From Tetradesmus obliquus (lineage: Eukaryota; Chlorophyta; Chlorophyceae; Sphaeropleales; Scenedesmaceae), in contig CP126204.1 in the NCBI GenBank assembly GCA_030272155.1, positions 744,001 through 808,000 on the forward strand: a stretch of DNA of 64,000 nt. Direction: 5' to 3'. The notes beneath the pieces were generated by a model that was given only the letters and a program-made list of their open reading frames with translations, did not search any database and had not been told where the DNA came from. The stretch's first letter is position 1. Each line of letters starts with the position of its first letter. Below are positions 22,470 through 53,401 of this stretch, in pieces. The position numbers and the translations under genes were made by a program.

Positions 22470-22926
22470 CCTTCACTCCAGGTTCTCCTCCTGTGCAATG
22501 TGGCTGCGCTGGTTGTGGTCCTTGGTGATGTGCCACAACCACCACTACCCTCCAATACCCTGCTGCTGCTGTTGCTGCCGATCTCACTCCATGATCGCCT
22601 CTTGCGCGATGTGGCGCCCCTGCTGCTGCAGCTGCTGCTGCTCCTGCTGCTGCTGCTGCTGCCAGCCACCCCTCGCTAAACACCACACACAACCCCTCAC
22701 TCCAGGATCTCCTCCTGTGCGATGTGGCTGCGCTGGTTGTCGTCCTTGGTGATGCGCCACAGCCACCGCTACCCTCCAAGATCCTGTCACTGCTGTTGCT
22801 GCCGATCTCACTCCATGATTGCCTCCTGCGCAATGTGACGCCCCTGCTGCTGCAGCTGCTGCTGCTCCTGCTGCTCCTGCTGCTGCTGCTGCCAGCCACC
22901 CCTCGCTAAACACCACACACAACCCC
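22470..22926 (-). repeat. Echoes of the RAD50 last exon beyond its stop codon
   Basis: The C-terminal coding stretch, from the GCGCATCACCAAGGACGACA part to the stop, recurs downstream at about 22690-22765 and, more diverged, at about 22465-22545. Shorter pieces (catgatygcctcytgcgc) occur at 22588-22612 and 22815-22838. The copies sit in tandem units of about 220 bases interleaved with CTG/CAG-rich sequence. All lie after the true TGA at 22927-22929, so they are untranslated. Confidence 0.85.
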
Positions 22927-23624
22927 TCACTCCAAGATCTCCTCCTGCGCGATGTGGCTGCGCTGGTTGTCGTCCTTGGTGATGCGCCACAGCCACTCCG
23001 CATGCGTCCGCGTGCCGATCAGGTGCGCAAAGTGCTCATCGTGCGTGATGACCAGCAGCTGGAAGTTGTCCTGGCCGCTGCGTGAAGCCATCAGGGCGCG
23101 CAGAGAGTCGGCAAGGCTCGCGCTGTTCTCTGCAGAACGAATGTGAAATAGACAGCAGTGCAGCAGCAGCAGCGCCTGGGTGTCAGAAAATGCTGATTAT
23201 CCAGTCAGCAAGTGATTTGGACGGTCATGTGATGGCCTTCAATGTTTGAAAAATGATCAGGTGCGAAAAGTGCTTGTCGTGCGTGATGACCAGCAGCTGG
23301 AAGTTGTCCTGGCCGCTGCGGGAGGCCATAAGGGCCCGCAAAGAATCTGCCAGGCTCGCGCTGGTCTCTGCAGAAATGACAGGGGGCAATGCAGGTGGTG
23401 CAGCAGCAGCAGCAGTAGCAGCAGCAGCGCGTATGGTTGTGAATTTCAACAATACACAGTAAACAGAGGTGAAAGGCAAACACACGCCGTTGCCGACATG
23501 TGTTTGGCTTGTGTGATGACAAGCAGCTGGAAGTTGTCCTGGCCGCTGCAACATGCCATCAGTGCGCGCAGCGAGTCTGCTAGGCTTGCGCTGTTCTCTG
23601 TGTATTCAGATGTGCGCAGGCAAC

Positions 23625-23665
<41 letters not shown>

Positions 23666-26600
23666 GGGGCATCTACTCCATCCAGCTCACATTCGTAATG
23701 GGCTATGGCATTTGGCCACAGTACAAACCAACCATAGGAAAAGGTTGGGCTGAAAAACATGTGCCATTGCAATGCAGAAACGTTGCTGGCAGAGGTGGCC
23801 TGGCGCCTACTGCAGTGCAGCGCACTAGGCCCAAACTTGGAAATTGCTACTGCATCCAGCTCACATTTGTAATGGGCTACGGCATTTGGCCACCGTACAA
23901 ACCAAACATAAGAACAGGCTGGATTGAAAGACATTTGCCATTGCAATGCAGAAACTCTGCTGGCACAGGTGGCCTGGCGCCTACTGCAGTGCAGCGCACT
24001 AGGCCCAAACTTGGAAATTGCTACTGCATCCAGCTCACATTCGTAATGGGCTACGGCATTTGGCCACAGTACAAACCAACCATAAGAACAGGCTGGATTG
24101 AAAGACATTTGCCATTGCAATGCAGAAACTCTGCTGGCAGAGGTGGCCTGGCGCCTACTGCAGTGCAGCGCACTAGGCTTGAACCATAAAAACTGCTACT
24201 CCATCCAGCTCACATTCTTAACGGGCTATGGCATTTGGCAACAGTATAAACTGACCTTTAAAAAAGGTGAGATTGAAAGACATTTGCCATTGCAATGCAG
24301 AAACTCTGCTGGCAGAGGTGACCTGGCGCCTACTGCAGTGCAGCCCACTACGGCAAAACGAGAAACTGCTACTCCATCCAGCTCACATTCTTCATGGGCT
24401 AGGGCATTTGGCAACAGTACAAACCAACCATAAGAAAAGGTTGGATTGAAAAACATGTGCCATGGCGATGCAGAAACTCTGCTGGCACAGGTGACCTGGC
24501 GCCTACTGCAGTGCAGCGCACTAGGCCCAAACTTGGAAATTGCTACTGCATCCAGCTCACATTCGTAATGGGCTACGGCATTTGGCCACAGTACAAACCA
24601 ACCATAAGAACAGGCTGGATTGAAAGGCATTTGCCATTGCAATGCAGAAATTCTGCTGGCACAGGTGGCCTGGCGCCTACTGCAGTGCAGCGCACTAGGC
24701 TTGAACCATAAAACTGCCACTCCATCCAGCTCGCATTCTTAATGGTCTGTGGCATTTGGCCACAGTACACACCATCCATAAGAAATGGCTGGATTGAAAA
24801 ACATTCGCCATTGCAATGCAAAAATTGTGCTGGCAGAGGTGACCTGGCGCCTACTGCAGTGCAACGCACTAGGCTCGAACCACAAAGATTGAAAATCATG
24901 TGCCACTGCAATGCAGAAACTCTGCCAGCAGGGGGTGGCCTGGAGCCTACCACACTGAAGCACTTGTGCTGCTGCGCATGCAGTTCGAGCTGGGCAGCAG
25001 CCTCAAAGCTGCTCACCACCACACAGTGCCATCACCCATTGACCACCAGCTGCACTCAAGCTCTTACAAATAGTTTGAAAATAACATGCTGTGACTATGC
25101 TGAGAGTTCTGGAGAATGCGCATTGATAGCCGCAGCGATTCAGGCAGACACGTGCGCTGCTGCGCATGCAGTGCGAGTAGCAACCTCAAAAGCTGCTCAC
25201 CACCACACAGTGCCATCACTCATTGCCCCGCTGCACGCAAGCTCTTACCATTAGCTTGAAAACAACATGCAGTGACTATGCTGGGAGTTCTGGAGAATGC
25301 GTATTGATAGCTGCAGCGATTTCCAGGCAAAAACGTGTCCTGCTGCGCATGCAGTGCAAGTAGCAACCTCAAAAGCTGCTCACCACCACACAGTGCCATG
25401 AACCACTGCCCCGCCGAACACAAGCTCTTACAAAAAGCTTGAAACAACATGCAGTGACTATGCTGGGAGTTCTGGAGAATGCGTATTGATAGCCGCAGCG
25501 ATTCCCAGGCAGACGCGTGCGCTGCTGCGCATGCCGTGCGACCTGGGCAGCAGCCTCAAAAACTGCTCACCACCACACAGTGCAATCACCCACTGCCCAG
25601 CTTCAGACAAGCTCTTACACATAGCTTGAAAGTAACATACAGTGACTGTGCGCAGGGTTCTAGAGAATGCGTATGGATAGCCGCAGCAGACACGTGTGCT
25701 GCTGCGCATGCAGTGCGAGCTGGGCAGCAGCCTCAAAGCTGCTCACCACCACGCAGTGCCATTACCCACTGCCCAGCTGCACACAAGCTCTTACAAATAG
25801 CTTGCAAATAACATGCAGTGACTATGCTGGGAGTTCTGGAGAATGCGTATTGATAGCCGCAGCGACTTTCAGGCAGACATGTGCGCTGCTGCGCATGCAG
25901 TGCGAGTGACGACCTCAAAAGCTGCTCACCACCATGCAGTGCCATCACCCACTGCCCAGCTGCACACAAGCTCTTACAAATAGCTTGAAAGTAACATGCA
26001 GTGAGTTTGCTGGGAGTTCTGGAGAATACGTATAGATAGCCGCAGCGATTTTCAGGCAGACACATGTGCTGCTGCGCATGCAGTGCGAGCTGGGCAGCAG
26101 CCTCAAAGCTGCTCACCACCACGCAGTGCCATTACCCACTGCCCAGCTGCACACAAGCTCTTACAAATAGCTTACAAATAACATGCAGTGACTATGCTGG
26201 GAGTTCTGGAGAATGCGTATTGATAGCCGCAGCGACTTTCAGGCAGACATGTGCGCTGCTGCGCATGCAGTGCGAGTGACGACCTCAAAAGCTGGTCACC
26301 ACCACACAGTGCCATCACCCACTGCTCAGCTGCACACAAGCTCTTACAAATAGCTTGCAAATAACATGCAGTGACTGTGCTCAGGGTTCTAGAGAATGTG
26401 TGTTGATAGCCGCAGCGATTTCCAGGCAGAAACGTGTCCTGCTGCGCATGCAGTGCAAGTAGCAACCTCAAAAGCTGCTCACCACCACACAGTGCCATCA
26501 CCCACTGCCCAGCTGCACACAAGCTCTTACAAATAGCTTGAAAGTAACATGCAGTGAGTATGCTGGGAGTTCTGGAGAATACGTATAGATAGCCGCAGCG

Positions 26601-29600
26601 ATTTTCAGGTAGACACATGTGCTGCTGCGCATGCAGTGCGAGCTGGGCAGCAGCCTCAAAGCTGCTCACCACCACGCAGTGCCATTACCCACTGCCCAGC
26701 TGCACACAAGCTCTTACAAATAGCTTGCAAATAACATGCAGTGACTATGCTGGGAGTTCTGGAGAATGCGTATTGATAGCCGCAGCGACTTTCAGGCAGA
26801 CATGTGCGCTGCTGCGCATGCAGTGCAAGTGACGACCTCAAAAGCTGGTCACCACCACACAGTGCCATCACCCACTGCTCAGCTGCACACAAGCTCTTAC
26901 AAATAGCTTGACAGTAACATACAGTGACTGTGCTCAGGGTTCTAGAGAATGCGTATTGATAGCCGCAGCGATTTCCAGGCAGAAACGTGTCCTGCTGCGC
27001 ATGCAGTGCAAGTAGCAACCTCAAAAGCTGCTCACCACCACACAGTGCCATCAACCACTGCCCAGCTGCACACAAGCTCTTTCAAATAGCTTGAAATAAC
27101 ATGCAGTAACTATGCTGGGAGTTCTGGAGAATGCGTATTGACAGCCGCAGCGATTTTCAGGCAGACGCGTGCGCTGCTGCGCATGTAGTGCGAGCTAGGC
27201 AGCAGCCTCAAAGCTGCGCACCACAACACAGTGCCATCACCCACTGCCCAGCTTCACTCAAGCTCTTACACATAGCTTGAAAGTAACATACAGTGACTGT
27301 GCTCAGGGTTCTAGAGAATGCGTATTGATAGCCGCAGCAATTTTCAGGCAGACGCATGCGCTGCTGCGCATGCAGTGCGAGCTAGGCTGCAGCCTAAAAG
27401 CTGCTCGCCACCACACAGTACCATCACCCACTGCCCAGCTTCAGACAAGCTCTTATAATTAGCTTGAAAATAACATGCAGTGACTATGCTGAGAGTTCTG
27501 GAGAATGCGTATTGATAGCTGCAGCGATTTCCAGGCAAAAACGTGTCCTGCTGCGCATGCAGTGCAAGTAGCAACCTCAAAAGCTGCTCACCACCACACA
27601 GTGCCATGAACCACTGCCCAGCTTCAGACAAGCTCTTACAATTAGCTTAAATATAACATGCAGTGACTATGCTGAGAGTTCTGGAGAATGCGTAGTGATA
27701 GCTGCAGCGATTTCCAGGCAACAACGTGTCCTGCTGCGCATGCAGTGCAAGTAGCAACCTCAAAAGCTGCTCACCACCACACAGTGCCATCACCCACTGC
27801 CCAGCTTCAGACAAGCTCTTACAAATAGCTTGAAATTAACATGCAGTGACTATGCTGAGAGTTCTGGAGAATGCGTATTGATAGCCGCAGCGATTTTCTG
27901 GCAGACACGTGCGCTGCTGCGCATGTAGTGCGAGTCGCAATCTCAAAAGCTGCTCACCACCACACAGTGCCATCACTCATTGCCCCGCTGCACGCAAGCT
28001 CTTACCATTAGCTTGAAAACAACATGCAGTGACTATGCTGGGAGTTCTGGAGAATGCGTATTGATAGCTGCAGCGATTTCCCGGCAAAAACGTGTCCTGC
28101 TGCGCATGCAGTGCAAGTAGCAACCTCAAAAGCTGCTCACCACCACACAGTGCCATGAACCACTGCCCAGCTTCAGACAAGCTCTTACAATTAGCTTAAA
28201 TATAACATGCAGTGACTATGCTGGGAGTTCTGGAGAATGCGTATTGATAGCTGCAGCGATTTCCAGGCAAAAACGTGTCCTGCTGCGCATGCAGTGCAAG
28301 TAGCAACCTCAAAAGCTGCTCACCACCACACAGTGCCATCACCCACTGCCCAGCTTCAGACAAGCTCTTACATATAGCTTGAAATTAACATGCAGTGACT
28401 ATGCTGAGAGTTCTGGAGAATGCGTATTGATAGCCGCAGCGATTTTCTGGCAGACACGTGCGCTGCTGCGCATGTAGTGCGAGTAGCAATCTCAAAAGCT
28501 GCTCACCACCACACAGTGCCATCACTCATTGCCCCGCTGCACGCAAGCTCTTACCATTAGCTTGAAAACAACATGCAGTGACTATGCTGGGAGTTCTGGA
28601 GAATGCGTATTGATAGCCGCAGCGATTTTCAGGCAGACGCGTGCGCTGCTGCGCATGCAGTGCGAGCTAGGCAGCAGCCTCAAAGCTGCGCACCACAACA
28701 CAGTGCCATCACCCACTGCGCAGCTTCACTCAAGCTCTTACACATAGCTTGAAAGTAACATACAGTGACTGTGCCCAGGGTTCTAGAGAATGCATATTTC
28801 AGCCGCAGCGAGTTTCAGGCAGACGCATGCGCTGCTGCGCATGCAGTGCGAGCTAGGCTGCAGTCAAAAAGCTGCTCACCACCACACAGTGCCATCACCC
28901 ACTGCCCAGCTTCAGACAAGCTCTTACAGATAGCTTGAAAGTAACATGCAGTGAATATGCTGGGAGTTCTGGAGAATGCGTATTGATAGCCGCAGCGATT
29001 TCCAGGCAGACGCGTGCGCTGCTGCGCATGCAGTGCGAGCTAGGCAGCAGCCTCAAAGCTGCGCACCACAACACAGTGCCATCACCCACTGCCCAGCTTC
29101 ACTCAAGCTCTTACACATAGCTTGAAAGTAACATACAGTGACTGTGCTCAGGGTTCTAGAGAATGCGTATTGATAGCCGCAGCAATTTTCAGGCAGACGC
29201 TTGCGCTGCTGCGCATGCAGTGGGAGTAGCAACCTCAAAAGCTGCTCACCACCACAAGTGCCGTCACCCACTGCCCAGCTGCACACAGCTGTTATAAACA
29301 GCTTGAACGTAACATGCAGTGACTATGCTGGGATTTCTGGACAATGCGTATTGACAGCCGCGCACTAGGCCAAAACCATACAACTGCTAATCCGTCCAGC
29401 TCACACTGGGTTAATGGGCACCAGCATTTGGCCACAACACAAACCAACCATAAGAAAAGCTTGGAATAGAAGAGAATTGCCATTGCAATGCAGAAACGCT
29501 GGCTGAGGTGAGCTGGCGCCTACTGCAGTGCTTACCACAGTGAGCGCACTCGGCCAAAACCATAGAACTGCTACTTCAACCAGTTCACATCCCTGAAGGG

Positions 29601-32128
29601 CACATACATTTGGCCACAATACAAACAAACGATTTAAAATGGTTCGATCGCAGGTATGTACGATAACTGAAGTCTCACCTGCGTCCAGGTTTGTCGTGGG
29701 CTCGTCCGCAGTTCAGGCAGAAGGTCTCCGCCAGCGCCAGTCGGATGATGAGGCGAGCCGCACACGTTCGCAACAGACACAAGCAGCCTCTGCAACTGCA
29801 AACCATGCCCCACACTACAGCCCAACTCAATAGCCCAGCATGCACGCGCCACACCTCCAGCCCTTACCTGCGTCCAAATTCGTTGTAGGCTCGTCCAGTG
29901 CGAGGATGCCGCAGTTGTGGCAGAAGGTCTCCGCCAGAGCCAGGCGGATGATGAGGCAGGCCAGCACCTTCTGCCCGGCTGAGCAGCGCCCGCGCATGTC
30001 CAGCTCTACGCCACCATTCACCATGACCACCCTGCATACATGTGCATCAACTGAATTGTAAGACTCGGTGGGCTGACAACCACATGATAGGAAGGCCAGC
30101 ACCTTCTGCCCAGCTGAGAAGCGCCCGCGCATGTCCAGCTCGACGCCACCATTCATCATCACCACCTTAGCGCCACCCTAGCTACCCTATAGGGCAGGCC
30201 TGCGCAGCGCAATGCAGATGTGGCACTGATATGCTTGTGCACTGTATTGTAACGAGCAGAGCAGCGGCCGCAAATGCCCAGTGAGGCAGCCGCAGGACAG
30301 TCGCAGGACATGCCTCATTGGCAGCTGACGGAGCGACATTTGCCTTCTCACCTGTGGTTGTAGCAGCGCGCCGCGCCCTCGGTGTCCCCTTTAATTGGTA
30401 TGTAGTGTATGTCCTGGCCGCGACAAGCAGGGATAAGCATGCAGGCTCAAGCACAACGGGTACACGCAAAAGCGCCATACTAACGAGGCTTCACACCTGT
30501 AGTTGTATGAGCGCGCAGTGCCCTCTGCATCTGCTTTAATCTGGATGTAGTCGATGTCCTGGCCGCGGTACGTCTTCTGCCACATCTCCTTCACGATCTT
30601 GTTGATGTCTGCCATCTTGCCTGGCAGCAGCAGCAGCAGATGTAGAATTATACCAGGATCACCAGCCTACTTTACCAGACACGCCGATACGCCTGATCAA
30701 GCTGCTGGTGTCAGCGGTGCCAACATGTTTATGATGTCACATGATGCAGCAGAAGACATATTGTTGATTATTGGCGGGGCCCGTAGGTGCTACTTAAGCG
30801 GACGTTTCGAAATGTGGCATGTTGCTACTGTCGTTGTTTTCGCAGCGCAGCTTCGATTCGTAACATTATTGTTGCTTTTTAATAAAAATTAAATACATGA
30901 GGTCCCTGCCACATTGATACGCACCATCGTATGGCCTGAACGCATTGAATCACACTTGTGTGTTTCGTGCTGATTGAATGAAGTCGATATATCTTTCTCA
31001 AATTGTGGTCAACTTTACGCAACATTGCGTTCCGTGCGGTCAAAGCCCACTTAAAGCGACTGGAAAAAGCTAACTTCCTGTATACGCAACAGAACGCCCA
31101 ATGTATACCGAACCAAAGTTTCATGATATAACGTGTAGAACGTATTCCACAGGATGGCTAGGGGAAAAGCGCGTTGACACCAAAGTTCGAGACATGGGTC
31201 TGTTGGAACTCTCGCTGTTCGGCGTGCTGACTAGGCACTGGAAATGCTGCTTTACAGCTGCAATAACTTGAAACAGCTGTTGAACAGCAGCCACTGCTGC
31301 TTATGTGTACTATCATGTACCACCATTGCGTTCGGCACTGTATGTGCTGCCGTCGTGCTTCCTCATGAATCAAAATATATTTGATAAGCTATCAAGAGCT
31401 ATTAAACGCTAAGCGGTATCTTTATTTTAAGCAGTCATAATGTCGCGGGTGACACTGCACAGCTTGCCATACATGCGTGTCGAACACAGTGGTGGCGCTG
31501 CCGGTTTCGAATAAAAACAAATTGGCTATCATTTGGCGTGGCTGATTCGATATCGCTGCATTGATCATGTTTCGCTGGCCGCGGACTCAGCTAGCCACGT
31601 CAGCACAAGCTCTGTCATCTTGTGCAGCTCTAGGGGGGGGGGGGGGGGGGTAAGGTAGGGGGGAGACCAGGGTCGAAAGAGAGCTGGCTTTAACCCTTAA
31701 GCTAGGCATCCTCTTCTTCTGGTGGTGGCCGCATATGCCTTTGCTTGACACCAACTGTAACAAGCATTCTTATGCTTACACCCCCTAGCTTCACTACTGC
31801 TGCGCTTTATCAACTGCATCACAACTTGCAGTAGGGCCCCGCCGAGTGACAGCGTAGCCTATTATTGATATGTTGGATTAGACATTACTTCAACCGATTT
31901 AATTATTTTCATTATCAGCGCACCCGTGTGGAAGGCCAGCAGCGCGCGCTCCAGCGCCTTGTGGTACTTGTCCAGGTCGGCAGCAGCCATCTCAGTGGTC
32001 TTCAGCTACAGGCAGGGAGCATTGGCAGCAGCAGCAGCAGCAGCAGCACACATGAGGGTGTTTCAGCACCTTGTGGTACTTGTCCAGGTCGGCAGCAGCC
32101 ATCTCAGTGGTCTTCAGCTGCGGCAAAA

Positions 32129-32183
<55 letters not shown>

Positions 32184-32695: not shown

Positions 32696-32728
<33 letters not shown>

Positions 32729-46500: not shown

Positions 46501-46717
46501 AATAGCTGCAGCGTGGCTGAATTGCTGTTGCTGCTGTTGCTGCTATTGCTGATGGCATCGCAGCAGATCATGCTTAGCTGCTGCCACCTCACCTGCTGCA
46601 GCCTGTCCTTGTAACTGGCTGCATCCATCTTCACGCTGACCCTGCACCGCTGCTGATCTCAACAGTGTAGCTGCAGTCTTGCCAGCTGCAGCTCTACACC
46701 ATCTTTTGCTGCTGTAG

Positions 46718-46750
<33 letters not shown>

Positions 46751-46881
46751 ATCGCACATTTTAGGATCGTAATGCCGCCTCACCTGCTGCAGCCGGTCCT
46801 CGTAGCTGGCCGCGTCCATCTGCTTCACGCGCAGCTCATTCACGCGCGACTCCCGCCTTGACGCGCCCTCGGCATCAGTCT

Positions 46882-46921
<40 letters not shown>

Positions 46922-49900
46922 TAGCAGGACCAGGCAGGCTGTGAGACAGTGAGCATGCACGGGCTGACGGCACACGCGTGGCCAGCTTTTCATAGGTCAA
47001 CAACTTGCTGCAGCCGCATCTACTGCACTGACTGACGACACAAGTTCTGCTGGAATGACGAGGTGCCCACAAAGCAGTTAGCATACCCACCTGCTTCAGC
47101 TCCTGCAGGAAAGCGTCAAACTCAGCGTCACTCTCCTCAAAGTCTCCGCCATTACTCATGTACCGCTCTTGCCTCATTCTTTACGCACCTCGCCATGCCT
47201 TCTCACTCTTTTCTCACCTGCTTCAGCTCCTGCAGGAAAGCGTCCAGCTCAGCGTCACTCTCCTCAAAATCTCCGCCGTCCAGCCGCGACAGCTTTTCAG
47301 ACGCGGCAGCAGACAGCACCTCCAGTTGTGCGCGCAACTGCAGCGCCAAATCAAAATGCAGCAAAAGCAGGCAAGGCAGAGACGGGCATGCAGGCCTGGT
47401 CAACAGCGGCGGGGCCCAGCACCATCAGCTGCGCGTGTAACTAATTCAGGTGCAGCAACAGCTAATGACAAATCAGTGCGGGCCTCAACCCTCAGCGGCA
47501 AACACGCCATACAACAGCATACAACACATAGACTGCTAGCACTGCTCAGCTGCTCTACCATGTCAGCAATCGCCACAGTCTAGTTGCTGAGCCATTGCTG
47601 CTGCAGCAGTGCCCTGGGGCTTCCCCCAGCATGCATGTGTCCCCCTCACCCTGCGCAGCTCCTCCATAACGTCAGCAATCGCGTCCAGCTTACAGCGAGT
47701 CCTGTGTTTAGTCATGTATGAGCTGCTTATGTGAACGAACATCTACAAACAACTGTGTGCGCCCGCCTCACCCGGCTCAGCTCGTCCACCACGTCAGCAA
47801 TCTGGTCCAGCTTGGCATCCATGGCAGCCACCTCAACTGCATGGCCGTCAATGGCGGCCTGGCAGCAGCAGCAGCAGCAGCAGCAGGAGAAGAGTTGGGC
47901 AGTCAGCCAGTAGCAGTATTGCTGCCAAGGGCTCCACCATAAACAGTGCATGTGTTGTGCGACAGATGCATGTGCTGTGCATGTGCTGTGCGACAGATGC
48001 ATGTGCTGTGCATGTGCTGTGCATGTGCTGTGCATGTGCTGTGCATGTGCTGTGCATGTGCTGTGCATGTGCTGTGCATATGCTGTGCATGTGCTGTGCA
48101 TGTGCTGTGCGACAGATGCATGTGCTGTGCATGTGCTGTGCATGTGCTGTGCATGTGCTGTGCATGTGCTGTGCATGTGCTGTGCGACAGATGCATGTGC
48201 TGTGCATGTGCTGTGCGACAGATGCATGTGCTGTGCATGTGCTGTGCATGTGCTGTGCATGTGCTGTGCATGTGCTGTGCGACAGATTCGCCCTGGCGCT
48301 GCGCACAGGTTGTACCAACAACAGCAACACATGATATGATGCAGAAGTACAGCAACAGAGGCACCTGCAGCGCCTGGATGTTGGCGTGCAGCCGCTCAGC
48401 CTTGACGCTGCCAGCAGCAATGTCGGCCCCAAGCGAAGCCGCCATGTCCTTGTGCCTCAGCGTGTCCAGCTTCACACAACAGCACTAGACAACCACAAAC
48501 AACAATGCGCCACTGCGTACCTGCAGCTGCTGGATCTAAATCTACCGGGAATCAAACTCAAACATGTCAACAGCAGAACAACAGCATTCTGACAACCGAA
48601 GACAATTCGCCGTGCAGCGCACCTGCAACTGCTGAATGTCTGCGTGCAGCCGCTCAGCCTTGGCGCTGCCGGCTGCAACATCAGCGCTGAATGAGGCCGC
48701 CATGTCCTTGTGGCTCTTGAGCGTGTCCAGATTCACACAACAGCAACCACAATCAACGATGCGTCACTGCGTACCTGCAGCTGCTGGATCTCAGTCTGAC
48801 GGGAGTCGAATCCAGCCTTTAATAGCAAAATAAATGCATTCTGACAACCGAAGACAACTTGCAGTGCAGCGCACCTGCAACTGCTGGATGTCTGCGTGCA
48901 GCCGCTCCGCCTTGGCACTGGCGGCAGCGATGTCAGCACTGAAGCTGGCTGCCATGTCCTTGTGGCTCTTCAGCGCGTCCAGTGTCACAATGCTACATGT
49001 AAACAGTACAATTAACCACGCGCCACAGCGTACCTGGAGCGGCTGAATCTGAAACAGGTAGGAACGAGAACCGTCAACAGCACAAAGAATCCATCTGACA
49101 GCGTAAGACAGCGTGCCATGCAGCGCACCTGCAGCTGCTGAATGTCTGCGTGCAGCCGCTCCGCCTTGGCGCTGCCGGCTGCAATGTCAGCGCTGAAACT
49201 GGCCGCCATGTCCTTGTGGCTCTTCAGCGTGTCCAGCTTCAGCCGCATTTCCTTCACCTCTTGAGTCTTCTCCAGACGCAGCTTGCGCAGCGTCTCCAAC
49301 GCCTGCGGCAGCGGTGTAGGGATAGCGGCAGCGGGAGAGCAGCAGCAGCAATATCAGCACTGAACTTTGTGTTTTGTGCAGGCGCAGCTTGCGCAGCATC
49401 TCCGATGCCTGGGTGTGGCAGCAGGGGCGGCAGGGCGGCAGCGGCAGCAGCGGCAACAGCGGCAGCAGGAAGGTGGGCGGGCAAGCGTGCACGCGGCATC
49501 CACCAACACAGAGGAGTGTAGGAGTAATCGAGGTGTGTTGCCTACATCATATACACACTCCTCGCATGCATGCTGGTGTGCATGCAGATGTCAACGACGC
49601 AGCGGCAGAAGTGAAGCTGTGGCGACATGCCGCAAAGCGACATCCCTGCGGACTCCTCCCTGCTCTGCATGCAGCGTGGCACAGATACCCACATGCAGAA
49701 CTGACCGCAGGTGTTGGTGCATGCGTCGCGCGTACCTTTGTGTACTTCGTTGCCGCAAAGATCTCGTCAAACTTCTTTTTGATGGTGGCGCCGTCAGCCA
49801 GCGGCCAGTTTGACTCCTCCTGGTGCACAAAGATGACATTGTCCAGCACAGCCTGCGGCGCATTCGAAAGTAATCAAGCGACGTGACATGTGACAGGTGT

Positions 49901-51546
49901 ATCACTGTTTGAAAGCGTCGTCAGCCAGTCGCCAATTTGACTCCTCCTGGTGCACAAAGATGACGTTGTCCAGCACGGCCTGCGCCGCTTTTTAAATTCA
50001 AAGCGTTGTATCATGTGACAACCTGTGTAACAATTTGCGAGCGCCGCCAGCCAGGGGCCAGTTTGACTCCTCCTGGTGCACAAAGATGGTGTTATCCTTC
50101 ACGGCCTGCGGCATAGTTTGCAACGAGGCAATGTAACATGTGACAGGGCGTGAATCAGTTTGCAAGACGTGCATGATGAGTGCAGAGGATAATCACAGTA
50201 AGCACATGCATTGTCAGAAATCACTGTGCTCACGCCCACGAGGCTAGGCACCATGGCGTTGATGTCAGAAGCAAACACAGAGATGCCATAACAACATCCA
50301 AGTGTGCACACGTACACTCTGCCTGCTCAGGAGCAGACCAGCAGACTGGTGTCTGCTGTACCACCTGCCCACCTTGCTGACTCCCATGCGGCTGGGCTCC
50401 ATGGCTTTGATGTCACAACATACAAACAAATGCCAAAAACTCTCCACGATGCCCCTTATACTATGGCTGCCCACCTTGCTGACCCCCATGAGGCTGGGCA
50501 CCATGGCGTTGATGTCAGCGCAGCGGTACGTGACCGCCTCCTTGGCGTGCGTGTCCTTGTTGTACGTCTGCAGCGTGGCGTCCAGCGTCTTGAACTGCAG
50601 CGTGGCCTTCTTTTGCACGTTCTGTATGCAGCAATGCAGCAGTAAAGATAACAGCGAAGGCAGTGAGGCACAGCACAAGCAGTGTGTAGTGCCCAAAGTC
50701 TTGAACTGCAGCGCCGCCTTCTTTTGCATGTTCTGCAGATGAAAAGAGCAGTAAACAAACAATCAAAGCAGTTAGGCACATAACAGGTGGGCATTCGCTG
50801 CCTGCGCACCTAAAAGGAGCGCATCAACACAAAGGGCATCTGCGTGCTGTTGGTGCCTATGAGCAGATCAAAGGGCTGTCTCAACAAATGCGTGTGGCTG
50901 CCTGCTACGCACCTGGAAGGAGCGCACCACCATAGGGCATCTGCGTGCTTGTGATGCATGTGAGCAGATCGGTAAGCAGTTTACAACATAAGCCTTGGCA
51001 TGGCTAGTCAACAGCACCGCAGCCTGCTGCGCACCTGGAAGGAGCGCACCACCACAAAAGGCATCTGTGTGCTGTTGGTGCTTATGAGCAGATGAAGGAG
51101 CTGTCTCAAAAAAGTAAGTGCCGCTGCCTGCTACGCACCTGGAAGGAGCACCAGCACGAAGGGCATCTGCGTGCTTGTGATGCATGTGAGCAGATCTATA
51201 AGCAGTTCACAACATAAGCCTTGGCATGCCAAGTCAGCAGCACCGCTGCCTGCAGTACACCTGGAGTGACCACGAAGGGCATCTGCGTGCTAGTGGCCAG
51301 TCCATCAGCAGCTCAAAGCATATCCATCTGCATGCTACGCACCTGGAAGGAGCGCACCACCACGATAAGGCATCTGGGTGCTGGCGTTACAGTGACTGCT
51401 GGGTAATCCAGAGTGAAGGAGTGCAACATATGAAGGCAGCGCGCACCTGGAAGGAGCGCACCACCACAAAGGGCATCTGCGTGCTGGTGCGCAGCCGCAG
51501 CTTGATCTGAGCCTTCACCTCGCTCTCGCCAGCAACCTGGGGCAGT

Positions 51547-51601
<55 letters not shown>

Positions 51602-53017
51602 GCAACAGCAGCAGCAGCAGCAGACGCAGCGACAGCAGCAGCAGCAGCAGCAGCAGCAGCGGCAGCAGCAGCATACGCAGCGGCAGCAGCAGCATACGCA
51701 GCAGAAGCAGCAGCAGACGTGTCAACATGACAGTTGGGTGCGCAGCTGCAGCTTAACCTGCGCCTTTACCACGCTCACGCCAGCCACCTGAGGCAGCGGC
51801 AGCAGAAGCGTGAAGAAGAAGCACATCATCATGCATGCCTCCACCTCGCTTTTGCCGGCGACCTGGAGCCAGGCAGCAGAGGCGGGAACAGCAGCAGAGG
51901 CGCAAGCGCCACAGTCCACGCCATGCAGAGGCGCAAGAAATCATGCAATGCGCACAAATAAATGACGTGAGAGAAGTTTGATGTCCCACTGCCTGCGCCT
52001 GGCTGCTGATTGTACTGGCTACTGGCTGCTGCTGCTTACTTGATTGTTGACTTGCTGTGTCGGATGCTTGACTCTTGCGCGTGCTGCATTGCTGTTGTGC
52101 CTGCTGTTCTGCTGTCGCTGGAGTTTTGTGTCTGCTGCTTGAGCGCACCTGCTGGCTGCTGAATGGTTGTGTCTGCCGCTCAACCACTGCATCTGTGGAT
52201 TGAGAGGCTGTGGCTACCCTGGCCTGTACTGCTGCCTCCTATCCTGCAGTGCACCTAGGACTCCTGAAACAGCACCCGTTTGCCTAGGGCCAACACCATG
52301 TAATTAACTGACTGTGCCTGCTTGCTTGACTGTGTCCGCCGCTTGGCTGTTCACCCCTGCTGCTCAACTGCCGCATGACTGCTGCTTGCTGGGCTGGTAT
52401 TTGCCACAAGAGCCGATACAGCTGCTTCTAGAATGCGCCACACTCAGGATGTAACACACTTGTTGCTGCCTGCGGCCCACCTTGGGATCCATCACCCAGT
52501 TGCAGCACCAGGCCATCACCTTACTGTGCCTGCTGCTGCTTTCAACGCTCTTGTGCCTGCTGCTTATGCATTTGATGCCTGCTGCTCATACATTTTGCGC
52601 CTGCTGCCTATACACTTTATGCCTGCTGCTTCAAGGCTTGGCTGCTCAAACACTTTGCGCCTGCTGCCTCACTGCTTTGCCAGCAGCGCACCTTGGGGTC
52701 CATCATTGAGTTGCAGCACCATGCCATCTTCTCACTGTTCCTGCTGCCGCTTAAACAAACAACACTGCGCCTGCTGCTTATGCATTTGATGCCTGCTGCT
52801 TATACATTTTGCGCCTGCTGCCTATACACTTTATGCCTGCTGCTTCTAGGCTTGGCTGCTCAAACACTTTGCGCCTGCTGCCTCACTGTTTTGCATGCTG
52901 CGCACCTTGGGGTCCATCACCCAGTTGCGGCCGTTACCGCCAATGTTAGGCGGCATCTCGCCCGTGCACGCCTGCCGCAGGCACTCGATGACGGTCTGGG
53001 CGGCAAAGCATCACGCC

Positions 53018-53050
<33 letters not shown>

Positions 53051-53401
53051 TGAGGCGCTACAGCCAGCTGGTCACTCACAGCTGGCTGCACAACACAAAC
53101 ACAATGCTTCATTTGCCACTACCCAAGAGCAGCGTGCATCACCTACACATGCCCCTTGATTGCTGCTACTGCTGCTGCTGCTGCTGTGACCTGCATTTCT
53201 GGTGTCTATAAACTGTTTTCATGCACACACTACTTCCACCAGCAATATGCCAGCTATCTACAGTAGCCGTGCACACTTGCAGGGCATGCTGCGCACCGTT
53301 TTGCCTGCTCCGTTGGAGCCCACGATGAGTGTGAGCGGCTTGTAAAACTCTATTACGTTGTTGTTGTCGGGACTGAAGCTACGGATGCCCTTCACGAGCA
53401 T
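22927..53401 (-). CDS. RAD50: RAD50 double-strand-break repair ATPase, 31 exons over 30.5 kb
   Basis: Exons (transcript order): 53401-53297, 52995-52906, 51536-51447, 50621-50475, 49852-49736, 49302-49129, 47858-47772, 47337-47218, 46879-46784, 46302-46046, 43782-43650, 43310-43243, 42350-42071, 41512-41412, 40161-39978, 39619-39484, 38839-38772, 38197-38051, 37618-37543, 37287-37181, 36906-36808, 36302-36204, 35869-35706, 34872-34731, 33781-33617, 33274-33161, 32696-32619, 32005-31924, 30620-30497, 30031-29868, 23129-22927. These total 4,017 bases and 1,338 residues (family about 1,310), with every junction in phase. N lobe: MLVKGIRSF, Walker A GSNGAGKT split by intron 1, [18 protein letters not shown]. 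Long coiled coil, then zinc hook CLVC near residues 715-718, then the returning coil. C lobe: YRGQDIDYI, signature CSAGQK, Walker B / D-loop [12 protein letters not shown]-loop [11 protein letters not shown]50 tethers and senses broken DNA with MRE11 and NBS1. A possible acceptor directly before the ATG suggests an extra 5' exon. The exon 15 donor (GTTGGT) is weak. Confidence 0.93.
23265..23605 (-). repeat. Two echoes of the 5' edge of RAD50 exon 31
   Basis: Copies at about 23265-23380 and 23500-23605 contain the acceptor region and the stretch encoding [12 protein letters not shown] and [13 protein letters not shown], then break off. The first differs from the true exon mostly at single bases; the second has CAACATGCCATC in place of the GCGTGAAGCCATC-type bases. 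Both lie upstream (in transcript sense) of exon 31. Confidence 0.92.
23630..23664 (+). repeat. (CAG)n run at the edge of the 174-base satellite
   Basis: About 12 CAG units separate the exon 31 echoes from the first satellite array. Confidence 0.9.
23675..24960. repeat. 174-base satellite array, about 7 copies
   Basis: The word TCCAGCTCAC recurs at 23681, 23855, 24029, 24204, 24377, 24551 and 24725, giving a period of 173-175. Units share GGCATTTGGCCACAGTAC, CATTGCAATGCAGAAAC and GGCGCCTACTGCAGTGCA. It lies wholly inside RAD50 intron 30. Open frames across it on either strand are repeat artefacts. Confidence 0.97.
24961..29355. repeat. Satellite array of about 183-base units, about 24 copies
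   Basis: Unit marks are CTGCTGCGCATGCAGTGCGA, CTCACCACCACACAGTGCC, CAAGCTCTTACA and AGTTCTGGAGAATGCGTAT. The last recurs with spacings of 176-188 (for example 25111, 25292, 25474, 25662, 25838). Longer blocks recur as sets: nearly identical segments start near 25690, 26066 and 26619, about two and three units apart, so the array has higher-order structure. It sits in RAD50 intron 30, unrelated to the 174-base unit apart from length. Confidence 0.97.
29360..29640. repeat. Diverged 174-base satellite units on the far side of the 183-base array
   Basis: Words of the first satellite return here (GTCCAGCTCACACTGGGTTAA, CATTTGGCCACAACACAAAC, CCATTGCAATGCAGAAACG, GGCGCCTACTGCAGTGC) in about one and a half degenerate copies. 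The 183-base array is therefore flanked on both sides by the 174-base family. Confidence 0.85.
29683..29765 (-). repeat. Echo of the 3' edge of RAD50 exon 30
   Basis: Repeats the part encoding RLALAETFC...[10 protein letters not shown] with its donor, but with a deletion so that the Walker B part follows directly after the GCGGAGACCTTCTGCC part. It lies downstream of exon 30 in the transcript. Confidence 0.88.
30088..30172 (-). repeat. Echo of the 5' edge of RAD50 exon 30
   Basis: Copies the stretch encoding [23 protein letters not shown], including the ABC signature region, with TTCTCAGC in place of TGCTCAGC. It is followed by intron sequence. It lies just upstream of the true exon 30. Confidence 0.9.
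30345..30430 (-). repeat. Echo of the 3' edge of RAD50 exon 29
   Basis: Repeats the stretch encoding GQDI.YI.IKADAEG.AR.YNYR plus a donor (CTCACCTG on the plus strand) between exons 29 and 30. It is diverged at several codons. Confidence 0.88.
30621..31923. other. AT-rich island, RAD50 intron 28
   Basis: Unlike all other introns, most of this 1.3-kb intron lacks CAG/CTG runs and exon echoes and is visibly AT-richer (for example AAAATATATTTGATAAG at 31371-31387 and TTTTTAATAAAAATTAAATA near 30877-30896). It holds an 18-base G run. No transposase or reverse transcriptase frame is seen, so it may be an inserted element remnant or simply different intron sequence. Confidence 0.6.
31633..31650 (+). 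repeat. Homopolymer of 18 G
   Basis: An uninterrupted G run followed closely by GGTAGGGGGGAG. It may be a G-quadruplex former or an assembly-sensitive site. Confidence 0.95.
32055..32245 (-). repeat. Two echoes of the 5' edge of RAD50 exon 28, with a CAG run
   Basis: The stretch encoding [16 protein letters not shown] with its acceptor recurs at about 32060-32120 and 32190-32243 (the latter reads [13 protein letters not shown]). A CAG run of about 17 units (32131-32182) separates them. Confidence 0.92.
32697..32737 (+). repeat. CAG run abutting the RAD50 exon 27 acceptor
   Basis: In the transcript it is (CTG)n ending at the CAG acceptor of exon 27 (begins 32696). Confidence 0.9.
33010..33085 (-). 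repeat. Echo of the 3' edge of RAD50 exon 26
   Basis: Repeats the part encoding [15 protein letters not shown] plus donor, about 140 bases downstream of the true exon end at 33161. A fragment of the same edge (CTGCTCCAGCCTGCTG) sits near 32880. Confidence 0.85.
33940..34500 (-). repeat. Five echoes of the 5' edge of RAD50 exon 25
   Basis: The stretch encoding [13 protein letters not shown] with its CTGCAG acceptor recurs at about 33945-34015, 34080-34125, 34205-34268, 34330-34378 and 34455-34500, period about 125. The copy nearest the exon also repeats the AENQNLV part (reading AENQNLG-like). The more distant ones are shorter. Confidence 0.93.
34922..34978 (-). repeat. Echo of the 5' edge of RAD50 exon 24
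   Basis: Repeats the acceptor and the stretch encoding [13 protein letters not shown] (here [13 protein letters not shown]) upstream of exon 24. Confidence 0.85.
35180..35645 (-). repeat. Four echoes of the 3' edge of RAD50 exon 23
   Basis: The stretch encoding [17 protein letters not shown] plus a donor (TTACTTGAGC or TCACTTGAGC on the plus strand) recurs at about 35182-35240, 35300-35365, 35428-35515 and 35580-35640. The copy at 35428-35515 is longest and includes [10 protein letters not shown]. Period about 130-150. Confidence 0.94.
35950..35998 (-). repeat. Echo of the 5' edge of RAD50 exon 23
   Basis: Repeats the acceptor and the stretch encoding LKAADEQMG upstream of the true exon start at 35869. 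Confidence 0.9.
36306..36440 (-). repeat. CAG run and echo of the 5' edge of RAD50 exon 22
   Basis: CAG runs (36307-36366) abut the exon 22 acceptor as (CTG)n in the transcript. Beyond them, 36390-36435 repeats the acceptor and the stretch encoding [11 protein letters not shown], with a base change that gives GACGAGCGCGCATGCGG. Confidence 0.9.
36678..36738 (-). repeat. Echo of the 3' edge of RAD50 exon 21
   Basis: Repeats the stretch encoding [13 protein letters not shown] with donor (here [11 protein letters not shown]) downstream of the exon end at 36808. A weak copy of the exon's 5' edge is at about 37012-37045. Confidence 0.87.
37493..37535 (+). repeat. (CTG)n run after the RAD50 exon 19 donor
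   Basis: About 14 CTG units on the plus strand, CAG in the transcript, beginning ten bases after the donor of exon 19. Confidence 0.93.
37685..37748 (-). repeat. Echo of the 5' edge of RAD50 exon 19
   Basis: Repeats the acceptor (CCGCAG) and the stretch encoding [16 protein letters not shown], nearly base for base. Confidence 0.93.
37860..38012 (-). repeat. Echo of the 3' edge of RAD50 exon 18
   Basis: About 37943-38012 repeats the stretch encoding [20 protein letters not shown] with donor (here [25 protein letters not shown]). A shorter copy of the very end lies near 37855-37880. Confidence 0.9.
38350..38602 (-). repeat. Two echoes of the 5' edge of RAD50 exon 18
   Basis: Copies at about 38355-38445 ([27 protein letters not shown]) and 38530-38600 ([20 protein letters not shown]), each with its acceptor CTGCAG. 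The first is nearly perfect in protein terms. Confidence 0.93.
39010..39425 (-). repeat. Four echoes of the zinc-hook exon (RAD50 exon 16) 3' edge
   Basis: The stretch encoding [15 protein letters not shown] with its donor recurs at about 39030-39076, 39128-39175, 39260-39308 and 39370-39418. The two copies nearest the exon belong to a 109-base tandem unit (39309-39417 and 39418-39526) that is almost identical. Each copy encodes the CxxC hook core but lacks an acceptor. Confidence 0.95.
39838..39912 (-). repeat. Echo of the 3' edge of RAD50 exon 15
   Basis: Repeats the stretch encoding [13 protein letters not shown] (here [13 protein letters not shown]) followed by GTGGGG, downstream of the exon 15 end at 39978. 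An in-frame TGA directly before the copy argues that it is not used as coding sequence. Confidence 0.8.
40165..40920 (-). repeat. Four echoes of the 5' edge of RAD50 exon 15 in tandem units of about 220 bases
   Basis: The stretch encoding [25 protein letters not shown] with acceptor recurs at about 40305-40385, 40528-40605 and 40738-40818, and as a short piece at 40885-40912. The intervening intron sequence is duplicated too: GAGAGAGGTGGTTTGAAAGG and AAAGGTCAGGCAAAGGTTTT occur in each unit. Units starting near 40087 and 40311 are almost base-identical. Confidence 0.96.
41095..41365 (-). repeat. Echoes of the 3' edge of RAD50 exon 14
   Basis: The stretch encoding [12 protein letters not shown] recurs at about 41325-41362 and 41222-41262, and in weak form near 41108-41145. 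They lie downstream of the exon end at 41412. Confidence 0.85.
41580..41745 (-). repeat. Two echoes of the 5' edge of RAD50 exon 14
   Basis: The acceptor and the stretch encoding [12 protein letters not shown] recur at about 41586-41625 and 41698-41738 ([12 protein letters not shown]). Period about 112. Confidence 0.93.
41815..42015 (-). repeat. Two echoes of the 3' edge of RAD50 exon 13
   Basis: The stretch encoding [28 protein letters not shown] plus donor recurs at about 41817-41912. A shorter copy, about 41950-42010, has a 12-base deletion in the QPLPH part. Confidence 0.94.
42410..42695 (-). repeat. Three echoes of the 5' edge of RAD50 exon 13 in 110-base units
   Basis: The acceptor and the stretch encoding [11 protein letters not shown] recur at about 42435-42466, 42550-42580 and 42660-42692. 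The intron part (GTGTGACACAACAGCCAAA, CAAGCAGTATCATGTACACT) is copied with them. Only the first 40 or so exon bases are included. Confidence 0.95.
43855..45795. repeat. Satellite of about 157-183-base units made of a 9-base word, about 11 copies
   Basis: The mark TTGCCGGCAGGCCCGCAACCC recurs with spacings of 157-183 (near 44005, 44167, 44328, 44510, 44693, 44856, 45026, 45195, 45357, 45527, 45700). Between the marks, CGCATTTCC and GCAATTCCC words are strung together. It fills most of the 2.3-kb RAD50 intron 10. Minus-strand open frames ([14 protein letters not shown] proteins up to 285 residues) are products of the repeat. Confidence 0.96.
45828..46012 (-). repeat. Two echoes of the 3' edge of RAD50 exon 10
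   Basis: The stretch encoding [16 protein letters not shown] plus donor recurs at about 45832-45895 and 45938-46003 in units of about 108 bases (shared intron words CAAAGA and GCAGCYTTYACAATCGCACC). Nearly identical to the true exon end at 46046. Confidence 0.96.
46580..46645 (-). repeat. Echo of the 3' edge of RAD50 exon 9
   Basis: Repeats the stretch encoding [14 protein letters not shown] plus donor, about 200 bases downstream of the true exon end at 46784. Confidence 0.92.
46881..46921 (+). repeat. CAG run abutting the RAD50 exon 9 acceptor
   Basis: (CTG)n in the transcript, ending exactly at the acceptor CAG; exon 9 begins at 46879. Confidence 0.95.
47088..47158 (-). repeat. Echo of the 3' edge of RAD50 exon 8
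   Basis: Repeats the stretch encoding [21 protein letters not shown] plus donor; two codons differ from the true exon. Confidence 0.95.
47550..47702 (-). repeat. Echo of the 3' edge of RAD50 exon 7
   Basis: About 47647-47690 repeats the stretch encoding [13 protein letters not shown] plus donor. A fragment (ATGTCAGCAATCGCCA) recurs near 47560. Confidence 0.85.
47946..48290. repeat. 11-base VNTR with interspersed GCGACAGAT
   Basis: About 28 copies of CATGTGCTGTG, interrupted five times by the word CGACAGATG. It lies in RAD50 intron 6. It gives open frames in all phases on both strands (CAVHVLC or CTAHAQHMH proteins), which are artefacts. Confidence 0.97.
48360..49045 (-). repeat. Three long echoes of the 3' edge of RAD50 exon 6 in units of about 255 bases
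   Basis: The stretch encoding [35 protein letters not shown] plus donor recurs at about 48363-48475, 48619-48735 and 48868-48985. The intron part that follows (GCGTACCTGCAGCTGCTGGATC) is also repeated at 48515, 48770 and 49030. Confidence 0.96.
49376..49415 (-). repeat. Echo of the 5' edge of RAD50 exon 6
   Basis: Repeats the stretch encoding [11 protein letters not shown] next to a CAG-like acceptor (ccaggcatcgg on the minus strand), upstream of exon 6 (start 49302). Confidence 0.85.
49915..50115 (-). repeat. Two echoes of the 5' edge of RAD50 exon 5
   Basis: The stretch encoding [20 protein letters not shown] with its GCAG acceptor recurs at about 49920-49985 and 50045-50110. The first is almost exact (one codon gives R for P). 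The second reads [19 protein letters not shown]. Period about 125. Confidence 0.96.
50226..50425 (-). repeat. Two echoes of the 3' edge of RAD50 exon 4
   Basis: The stretch encoding [13 protein letters not shown] plus donor recurs at about 50232-50265 and 50368-50415 ([14 protein letters not shown]). Confidence 0.93.
50695..50745 (-). repeat. Echo of the 5' edge of RAD50 exon 4
   Basis: Repeats the CTGCAG acceptor and the stretch encoding [13 protein letters not shown] upstream of exon 4. Confidence 0.94.
50804..51395 (-). repeat. Six echoes of the 3' edge of RAD50 exon 3
   Basis: The stretch encoding [11 protein letters not shown] plus donor recurs at about 50806, 50910, 51031, 51134, 51255 and 51338, each 35-45 bases, in units of about 100-120. 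Alternate units pair by flanking sequence: CTGTTGGTGCYTATGAGCAGAT in two and CTTGTGATGCATGTGAGCAGATC in two. The array may therefore have grown by duplication of two-unit blocks. Confidence 0.96.
51541..51718 (+). repeat. Compound CAG tract before RAD50 exon 3
   Basis: About 19 CAG units (51545-51600) followed by interrupted CAG/CGG/CATACG stretches. (CTG)n in the transcript, ten bases from the exon 3 acceptor. Confidence 0.94.
51725..51880 (-). repeat. Two echoes of the 5' edge of RAD50 exon 3
   Basis: The acceptor and the stretch encoding [17 protein letters not shown] occur at about 51735-51790. The shorter VAGKSEVEA copy occurs at about 51838-51870. Confidence 0.92.
52470..52905 (-). repeat. 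Tandem 216-base duplication with two echoes of the RAD50 exon 2 3' edge
   Basis: The donor plus the stretch encoding WVMDPK (N.MMDPK in one) recur at about 52474-52510 and 52688-52728. The 170 bases of following intron, with GCCTGCTGCTTATACATTTTGC and CTTGGCTGCTCAAACACTTT, are duplicated alongside. Confidence 0.94.
53017..53050 (+). repeat. CAG run before RAD50 exon 2
   Basis: About 11 CAG units, (CTG)n in the transcript, 20 bases upstream of the exon 2 acceptor. Confidence 0.93.

What the first reader, a model, noticed from the sequence alone, without database searches (positions are those of the whole stretch)
22470..53401. Exon echoes: RAD50 introns are filled with partial tandem copies of the neighbouring exon edges
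Directly visible: 25 of the 31 RAD50 exons have one or more partial copies of one edge (30-120 bases) in an adjacent intron, about 65 copies in all, usually in units of 100-260 bases that include intron sequence. The gene needs 4.0 kb of coding sequence but covers 30.5 kb. Partial exon duplication occurs elsewhere, but I know of no description of a gene where nearly every exon border has been tandem-duplicated repeatedly. It suggests a local mutational process, such as replication slippage or microhomology repair, that acts on short tandem segments and survives only where splicing still finds the intact exon.
Basis: partly seen in the sequence, partly recalled or inferred. Interest (0 to 1): 0.92.

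Follow-up and report, generated by a model that had tools for sequence, protein, structure and literature searches.

The report
Exon-edge copies filling algal introns
In the green alga Tetradesmus obliquus, the introns of the DNA-repair gene RAD50 (and of some other genes) are packed with nearby partial copies of the neighbouring exon edges, mostly displaced by about 100-150 bases, and in two genes these copies surprisingly still look like constrained protein-coding sequence.

Summary
The window is Tetradesmus obliquus; RAD50 lies on the minus strand with 31 exons. At 36 bits or more there are 65 exon-edge copies, all in an adjacent intron or just 3' of the last exon, none in other introns, none inverted; 25 of 31 exons have one at 30 bits. 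It is not special to RAD50: a tryptophanase gene has 15 copies at 10 borders, all adjacent, and other loci show coding-like copies. The displacement has a characteristic size: median 124.5, 125 and 126 bp in RAD50, the rest of the window and 17 other stretches. A third of copies (24 of 72) share intron flank with their source, and TRF finds nine arrays running into real exon edges, so local tandem duplication is well supported. The surprise: copies differ from exons mainly at silent sites (tryptophanase: 5 of 399 zero-fold, 25 of 101 four-fold; p 2e-7 against a dead copy; RAD50 p 7e-5). Pooled other loci do not show this (p 0.27). Best reading: recurrent short direct duplication across splice sites, kept on the intron side by selection on splicing, with arrays exchanging sequence with functional exons; the exchange step is inferred.

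The parts
22927..53401 (-). RAD50 gene, 31 coding exons, 4017 nt CDS including stop, 30 introns totalling 26458 bp
   Evidence: splice model; homologues; intron total; Pfam AAA_23, SbcC_Walker_B
52467..52928 (-). TRF array, period 214, running from the 3' edge of exon 2 into intron 2 (exon 2 has no copy at 40 bits but has one at 38 bits or less)
50814..51384 (-). 6 copies of the 3' edge of exon 3 in intron 3; TRF array period 226 at 50802-51265 (copies only)
50698..50732 (-). copy of the 5' edge of exon 4 in intron 3
50227..50415 (-). 2 copies of the 3' edge of exon 4 in intron 4
49915..50088 (-). 2 copies of the 5' edge of exon 5 in intron 4; TRF array period 127
49367..49403 (-). copy of the 5' edge of exon 6 in intron 5
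48365..48982 (-). 3 copies of the 3' part of exon 6 in intron 6; TRF array period 254 at 48361-49241
47650..47691 (-). copy of the 3' edge of exon 7
47091..47150 (-). copy of the 3' edge of exon 8 (95% over 60 nt, intron flank not alignable)
46593..46636 (-). copy of the 3' edge of exon 9
45834..45990 (-). 2 copies of the 3' edge of exon 10; TRF array period 106
42420..42683 (-). 3 copies of the 5' edge of exon 13 in intron 12; TRF array period 111
41825..42005 (-). 2 copies of the 3' part of exon 13
41580..41727 (-). 2 copies of the 5' edge of exon 14
41228..41258 (-). copy of the 3' edge of exon 14
40308..40815 (-). 3 copies of the 5' edge of exon 15 in intron 14; TRF array period 220; the nearest copy (40381) is a mosaic
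39873..39910 (-). copy of the 3' edge of exon 15
39034..39421 (-). 4 copies of the 3' edge of exon 16 (the exon with the CLVC zinc-hook motif, motif recalled); TRF array period 109
38351..38587 (-). 2 copies of the 5' part of exon 18
37947..38012 (-). copy of the 3' part of exon 18
37693..37739 (-). copy of the 5' edge of exon 19
36691..36725 (-). copy of the 3' edge of exon 21
36391..36423 (-). copy of the 5' edge of exon 22
35957..35982 (-). copy of the 5' edge of exon 23
35186..35635 (-). 4 copies of the 3' edge of exon 23
33957..34485 (-). 3 copies of the 5' edge of exon 25
33022..33060 (-). copy of the 3' edge of exon 26; the protein model of the other T. obliquus assembly takes in a 19-residue copy of this edge as coding
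32064..32237 (-). 2 copies of the 5' edge of exon 28; TRF array period 112
30352..30422 (-). copy of the 3' part of exon 29
30084..30166 (-). copy of the 5' part of exon 30 (ABC signature exon, motif recalled)
23255..23597 (-). 2 copies of the 5' part of exon 31 in intron 30
22473..22766 (-). 3 copies of the end of exon 31 including its stop codon, 3' of the gene and outside any intron; TRF array period 224

Best explanation
Short local direct duplications recur in this genome, displaced mostly by about 100-150 bp or multiples of that (shown). When one crosses a splice junction, the copy nearer the exon body stays the real edge and the outer copy lies in the intron with its own splice signal (shown as anatomy). 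Copies that would disturb the exon or its splicing are removed by selection, so only outward copies on the right side survive (inferred from the total one-sidedness). Arrays then grow, shrink and recombine with the real edge, giving mosaic units (seen at exons 13 and 15). Because exon-derived blocks keep being exchanged with, or were recently taken from, functional exon versions, most of their differences from the exon have passed the protein filter, so they look coding-constrained although they are not in the protein (inferred, the weakest step). The duplication step itself could be break repair or slippage (not tested).
For: All 60 copies lie next to their own exon edge, none elsewhere or inverted; same in a second gene, 15 of 15 adjacent within its 10-kb locus. 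Median displacement 124.5, 125 and 126 bp in three separate sets. Intron flank shared with the source at p<0.01 in 19 of 57 RAD50 and 5 of 15 tryptophanase copies, against 0 of 60 and 2 of 60 controls. TRF, run blind to exons, finds nine arrays (periods 106 to 254) that run into real exon edges, exons 2, 5, 6, 10, 13, 15, 16, 28 and 31. Mosaics: the nearest exon 15 copy has an intron flank identical to the exon's over the first 100 aligned columns but carries the silent variants of an older copy; two of three exon 13 copies match the flank at 93-95% yet the exon block at 83%. No near paralogue was found that could be the source (for RAD50 only 304 residues of the head regions were searched).
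Against: Two thirds of copies have no detectable intron-flank homology, some with exon blocks 95-98% identical, which plain tandem duplication plus neutral decay does not give. Four-fold divergence near 0.2-0.25 means exchange must be rare relative to mutation, yet the silent-site bias needs effective protein-level selection; both together need a very diverse population or a recent union of diverged alleles (my reasoning). Against the latter, the other T. obliquus RAD50 protein differs at only 7 aligned residues. The pooled other loci fit neutral copies (ratio 0.40, p 0.27).
Confidence: 0.5

Rival explanations
1. Ordinary tandem duplications across splice junctions that decay neutrally; nothing but mutation plus selection on splicing.
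For: Geometry, TRF arrays, shared flanks in a third of copies. Stops (5 of 53 ungapped copies) and net frameshifts (4 of 60) do occur in RAD50 copies. Single-copy borders in RAD50 are only marginally off (ratio 0.26, p 0.053) and pooled other loci fit (ratio 0.40, p 0.27). Singletons in multi-copy arrays (41 of 565 zero-fold, 27 of 151 four-fold) allow it if older copies include stretches of exon lineage.
Against: Silent-site bias: tryptophanase 5 of 399 against 25 of 101 (p 2.1e-7), RAD50 39 of 1046 against 51 of 260 (p 6.5e-5), with a CpG weight allowed for. Near-identical exon blocks with unrelated spacers in 4 of 9 printed pairs.
Confidence: 0.25
2. The copies are directly functional coding sequence, used as alternative exon edges or cassettes in some transcripts.
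For: The silent-site bias in tryptophanase is strong; most copies keep an open frame (48 of 53 ungapped in RAD50) and splice signals, and an unconstrained gene finder takes many as exons, 60 instead of 31; one copy is coding in the protein model of the other assembly.
Against: Copies have one splice site only, and by eye the inner ends mostly lack a fitting partner site; copies include ABC and PLP-enzyme core sequence whose insertion should break the protein (inference); stops and frameshifts in RAD50 copies; the copies past the stop codon of exon 31 show no codon bias (5, 3, 4 changes by codon position); the copy annotated in the other assembly differs from the window's at 4 of 19 residues.
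Confidence: 0.12
3. The copies came together with the exons from diverged functional alleles (hybrid or hyperdiverse population) by unequal recombination, so their divergence accrued while both were working exons.
For: Copy-copy and copy-exon divergences are alike (four-fold 0.28 and 0.21 uncorrected; zero-fold to four-fold ratio 0.18 and 0.16); mosaics exist.
Against: The two other T. obliquus RAD50 proteins listed have only 7 and 4 aligned mismatches to the model, the second over 1271 of 1338 residues; several distinct copies per exon need several donor alleles.
Confidence: 0.2
4. Assembly artefact (collapsed or mis-joined haplotypes).
For: No reads could be examined here.
Against: Copies are 70-100% identical with graded divergence, up to six per exon with shared array spacers; the protein of the other assembly carries an exon 26 copy of the same length at the same place.
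Confidence: 0.04

Closest known systems
Short tandem duplications by break repair (Vaughn and Bennetzen 2014, rice: seen only as a reference-list entry, the paper is not held; Schimmel 2021, PMC8355091: abstract and passages)
   Same: Short local direct duplications described as common in natural genomes
   Different: Here they recur at most exons of a gene, pile up in arrays, have a characteristic 100-150 bp displacement, sometimes with unrelated spacers; the mechanism was not tested
Intron gain by tandem duplication (Rogers AGGT model; potato RdRp case, PMC4974935; Drosophila cases, PMC2891723: passages seen)
   Same: Tandem duplication of intron-exon or exonic segments inside genes
   Different: By my reading of that model the new intron carries the downstream edge at its start and the upstream edge at its end; here, in all 7 RAD50 and 3 tryptophanase introns that hold both kinds, each copy lies nearest its own exon
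Introners (PMC9860276, passages seen)
   Same: Repeated sequence inside introns on a genome scale, in algae among others
   Different: No shared element: flanks of different exons are not homologous (0 of 60 and 2 of 60 at p<0.01); the repeated part is the local exon
Tandem exon duplication with mutually exclusive splicing (recalled)
   Same: Coding-like exon copies in neighbouring introns
   Different: Copies are partial; at 16 of 41 borders (12 of 31 in RAD50, 4 of 10 in tryptophanase, my reading) the nearest displacement is shorter than the exon, so there a whole exon was not copied
Minisatellites in introns (recalled)
   Same: TRF arrays, periods 106-254
   Different: Units contain exon edges, and the exon part keeps codon structure

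Membership tests
Local tandem duplication array | direct orientation and adjacency | tested here: met
   60 of 60 adjacent at 40 bits, 0 inverted
Local tandem duplication array | head-to-tail unit containing both exon part and intron part | tested here: inconclusive
   flank shared at p<0.01 in 19 of 57 and 5 of 15, nine TRF arrays running into real exon edges; not detectable in the rest
Local tandem duplication array | neutral decay of the extra copy | tested here: inconclusive
   not met in tryptophanase (p 2.1e-7) and RAD50 (p 6.5e-5); RAD50 single-copy borders p 0.053; pooled other loci p 0.27
AGGT tandem-duplication intron gain | intron begins with a copy of the downstream exon edge and ends with a copy of the upstream edge | tested here: not met
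   RAD50 introns 3, 4, 13, 14, 18, 21, 29 (7 of 7 holding both kinds) and tryptophanase introns 2, 3, 4 (3 of 3) have the opposite order (coordinates)
Introner | many copies of one element across genes | tested here: not met
   flank comparisons between different RAD50 exons; spacers were not searched against the genome
Mutually exclusive exon duplication | whole exon with both splice sites copied | tested here: not met
   all copies found are partial, one edge each
Retrocopy of mRNA | joined exons without introns | tested here: not met
   at 40 bits no exon matches the neighbourhood of another exon, so no copy joins two exons at that sensitivity
RAD50 | N- and C-terminal ATPase halves and CxxC zinc hook | tested here: met
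   Pfam AAA_23 and SbcC_Walker_B, CLVC in exon 16 read directly (the Pfam zinc-hook model was not among the matches); full-length homologues

The most novel reading that the evidence does not exclude
Introns of this alga hold an exchangeable reserve of exon edges: partial exon copies that stay under protein-level selection because recombination keeps moving them into and out of the working exon, so that introns act as a template library for exon edges. A single duplication process with a typical step of about 125 bp would build it genome-wide.
Probability: 0.22. Interest if true: 0.92.

Novelty: new variant of a known kind. Interest (0 to 1): 0.78.

Why it matters
If generally true, it shows intron growth in a eukaryote driven by repeated short duplication of exon edges with a characteristic step, in enough independent copies to read the mutational process directly. 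The silent-site bias of copies that ordinary splicing should not use is a sharp puzzle about how selection reaches intronic DNA. It also shows how gene prediction can pick up false exons here (60 instead of 31). Two 17-piece assemblies of the species and several further strains are listed in print (PMC12571836, passages seen), so the question can be settled.

Tried and rejected
Paralogue as source of the copies: searches with tryptophanase (whole model) and RAD50 (304 of 1338 residues, head regions) found no near second copy; a tryptophanase-like locus on C5 is only 33-47% identical (only the best candidates are scored by that tool). Whole-exon duplication later truncated: rejected where the displacement is shorter than the exon (16 of 41 borders); elsewhere not excluded. 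CpG hypermutability as the cause of the silent-site excess: non-CpG sites alone still give ratio 0.20, interval 0.14-0.28; intron mismatch rates by base are 0.070-0.092. Alternative seamless splice route through AG|GT: read by eye, possible for few blocks only, not counted. Gene conversion alone: by my own reasoning it gives a ratio near 0.5 or more, so it is not sufficient. My first reading that the copies are under full constraint was weakened by the lineage-resolved counts and the other loci. Codon-phase test on local repeats: L025, L026 and RAD50 positive (z 6.0, 4.9, 5.2), L023, L024 and the window outside RAD50 not (z -1.1, 0.6, -0.2). One search failed on a start-coordinate error and was redone.

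Sampling limits: of 60 ten-kilobase stretches asked for, 20 were given, all on contigs C1 and C2; one (L018) reads all N and was dropped, and L011 and L022 (satellite-like) were left out of the pair counts and of the sample. So 'genome-wide' rests on C1, C2, C14 and scattered gene loci. The gene finder was trained on codons of RAD50 itself. Tryptophanase copies were counted from 36 bits, RAD50 copies from 40 bits.

Full report
What the window is. It lies at C14:744001-808000 of a genome of 104.66 Mb in 17 contigs. RAD50 on the minus strand was modelled with a small splice-aware gene finder of mine; left free it chose 60 exons, many of them copies, and with copies barred by hand it gave 31 exons. 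The best protein match is a Tetradesmus obliquus hypothetical protein, OEZ85_004263, on a contig of 4,714,560 bases, while the window's contig has 4,804,715, so that protein is from another assembly. A passage of PMC12571836 lists T. obliquus assemblies of 104.70 Mb (GCA_030272155.1) and 100.30 Mb (GCA_030272055.1), 17 pieces each; that G000 is the first is my inference from size. Exon order and content are supported by collinear relatives, one of 53% identity from a contig of only 4,933 bases.

Is the pattern real? Yes. With microsatellites masked, 60 copies reach 40 bits, all beside their own exon, none in other introns, none inverted; 57 of 60 touch the exon edge within 8 nt. At 36 bits there are 65, still with none far; at 30 bits 72 adjacent and 5 far, 25 of 31 exons. 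Shuffled introns give means of 3.0, 5.05 and 5.9 hits at 40, 34 and 30 bits, of which 3 are, by my reading, the unshuffled copies beyond the gene. Local direct repeats within 1.5 kb cover 45% of exon bases, 62% of intron bases and 11% of the rest of the window.

Is RAD50 special? In degree, not in kind. Nineteen readable ten-kilobase stretches on C1 and C2 have a median local-repeat cover near 4% and a mean near 15% (0.143 over all 20, the masked one included); ten-kilobase pieces lying mostly in RAD50 have 32-67%. Two high stretches (L011, L022) are satellite-like. Others carry coding-like copies in what look, by recalled motifs, like a SNF2 helicase, a magnesium transporter, a tryptophanase and an aldo-keto reductase, and 4 of 19 SMC/RAD50-family hit loci have a local repeat inside the matched exon itself, two of them being the same place (L005 and L037). 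A kinesin on C2 shows about the same profile stretch (262-289) four times within 735 bases; among the 135 kinesin matches listed this is the clear case. The tryptophanase gene was checked properly: Pfam Beta_elim_lyase, homologues at 83% and 76% from two named Scenedesmus and 86% from an unnamed source, eleven exon blocks read against them, 15 copies at 36 bits or more at 10 borders of 7 of 11 exons, all adjacent, none inverted, within its ten-kilobase locus.

Anatomy and size. The nearest-copy displacement has median 124.5 bp in RAD50 (n 58), 125 in the rest of the window (n 18) and 126 in 17 other stretches (n 81); 57%, 78% and 60% fall in 100-150 bp, while the satellites do not. TRF, blind to exons, reports nine arrays that run into real exon edges, with periods 106, 109, 111, 112, 127, 214, 220, 224 and 254, and one of copies only, 226. 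Beyond the splice consensus, the intron flank of copy and source is related at p<0.01 in 19 of 57 RAD50 and 5 of 15 tryptophanase copies, against 0 of 60 and 2 of 60 for flanks of different exons. So a part are plain tandem duplications across the junction. For the rest the flank is not recognisable even where the exon block is 95-98% identical. Of nine near-identical pairs that I printed from outside RAD50, two are tandem or nearly so; the other seven have spacers of 52-83 bases, unrelated to the matching flank in four (L013, L023, L025, L026), weakly like it in two (0.72 against 0.60 and 0.64 against 0.56 for shuffles), and alike only by CAG repeats in one. Either the flank has been replaced, or the block has been homogenised, or the event copies a block at a distance.

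The unexpected part. Differences between copy and exon sit at third codon positions: 63, 38 and 187 at positions 1, 2 and 3 over 60 copies. Zero-fold divergence is 0.040 and four-fold 0.248 after correction, ratio 0.16, interval 0.12-0.22. Using one copy per border: RAD50 39 of 1046 and 51 of 260 (p 6.5e-5), tryptophanase 5 of 399 and 25 of 101 (p 2.1e-7). These p values treat sites as independent. Results the other way: RAD50 borders with a single copy give p 0.053, 36 coding-like pairs from other loci give ratio 0.40 and p 0.27 (that set includes a repeat protein and pairs whose frame is only guessed), and singletons in multi-copy arrays fit neutrality if old copies include stretches of exon lineage. 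RAD50 copies do carry stops (5 of 53 ungapped) and net frameshifts (4 of 60). In tryptophanase the exon 5 copy and the downstream exon 6 copy differ almost only at third positions; the upstream exon 6 copy has several amino-acid changes as well, but at two of them it keeps residues that the three relatives have and the working exon has lost.

How it most likely works. Shown: local, direct, one-sided, step near 125 bp, arrays, and mosaics in which a copy joins the flank of the exon to the block of an older copy (exon 15 copy at 40381, two of the exon 13 copies). Inferred: a recurrent short-duplication process; removal of copies that disturb splicing; exchange between array and exon. The exchange idea has a quantitative weakness that I could not resolve: silent divergence of 0.2 or more means exchange is rare, while effective selection on copies needs it frequent or needs diverged functional alleles to have been joined. 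Direct use in transcripts would explain the bias most simply, but one-sided splice signals, core enzyme sequence in the copies and stops speak against it.

What is in print. Eight searches of the open library were run. Listings and passages gave tandem-duplication intron gain (PMC4974935, PMC2891723), introners (PMC9860276), break-repair duplications (PMC8355091; abstract and passages) and T. obliquus genome statistics: mean intron 462 bp and 7.8 introns per gene in UTEX 393 (PMC5966456, passages). Looking for intron, tandem repeat and exon in PMC7590803 and for intron and tandem in PMC12571836 returned none. I found no description of this pattern within those searches; most subscription papers are not in the library.

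Noticed in passing
window 23673-29361 (intron 30, 6738 bp): Long satellite arrays, periods 174 and 183 (with a 370 double period), fill most of the largest intron of RAD50.
   Followed up: partly
window 43958-44781 and around (intron 10) and 47946-48280 (intron 6): Degenerate arrays of GGGAAATGC-like units (periods 163 and 186) and an 11-bp minisatellite (TGCATGTGCTG) inside introns.
   Followed up: no
L025 (C2:7500001-7510000): A tryptophanase-like gene; beyond three algal or unnamed relatives the named hits near the top of the list are archaeal (Bathyarchaeia, about 68% identity). If it was transferred, its copy-laden introns are later gains, which would date the process.
   Followed up: partly
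G000 C5:6654504-6657781: A second, diverged tryptophanase-like locus (33-47% identity) whose matches show only small overlaps of query range, no copy-like repeats.
   Followed up: no
window 33022-33078 against P0001: The RAD50 model of the other assembly includes a 19-residue copy of the exon 26 end as coding; the window's copy of the same length differs from it at 4 residues, while the rest of the aligned protein has 7 mismatches.
   Followed up: partly
L011, L022 (C1:4500001-4510000, C2:4500001-4510000): Low-GC stretches (0.49, 0.48) dense in direct repeats of mostly 300 bp step or more, with some inverted ones; possibly centromeric or transposon arrays.
   Followed up: no
window introns near acceptors: CTG/CAG trinucleotide runs adjoin several splice acceptors; they could seed misalignment.
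   Followed up: no
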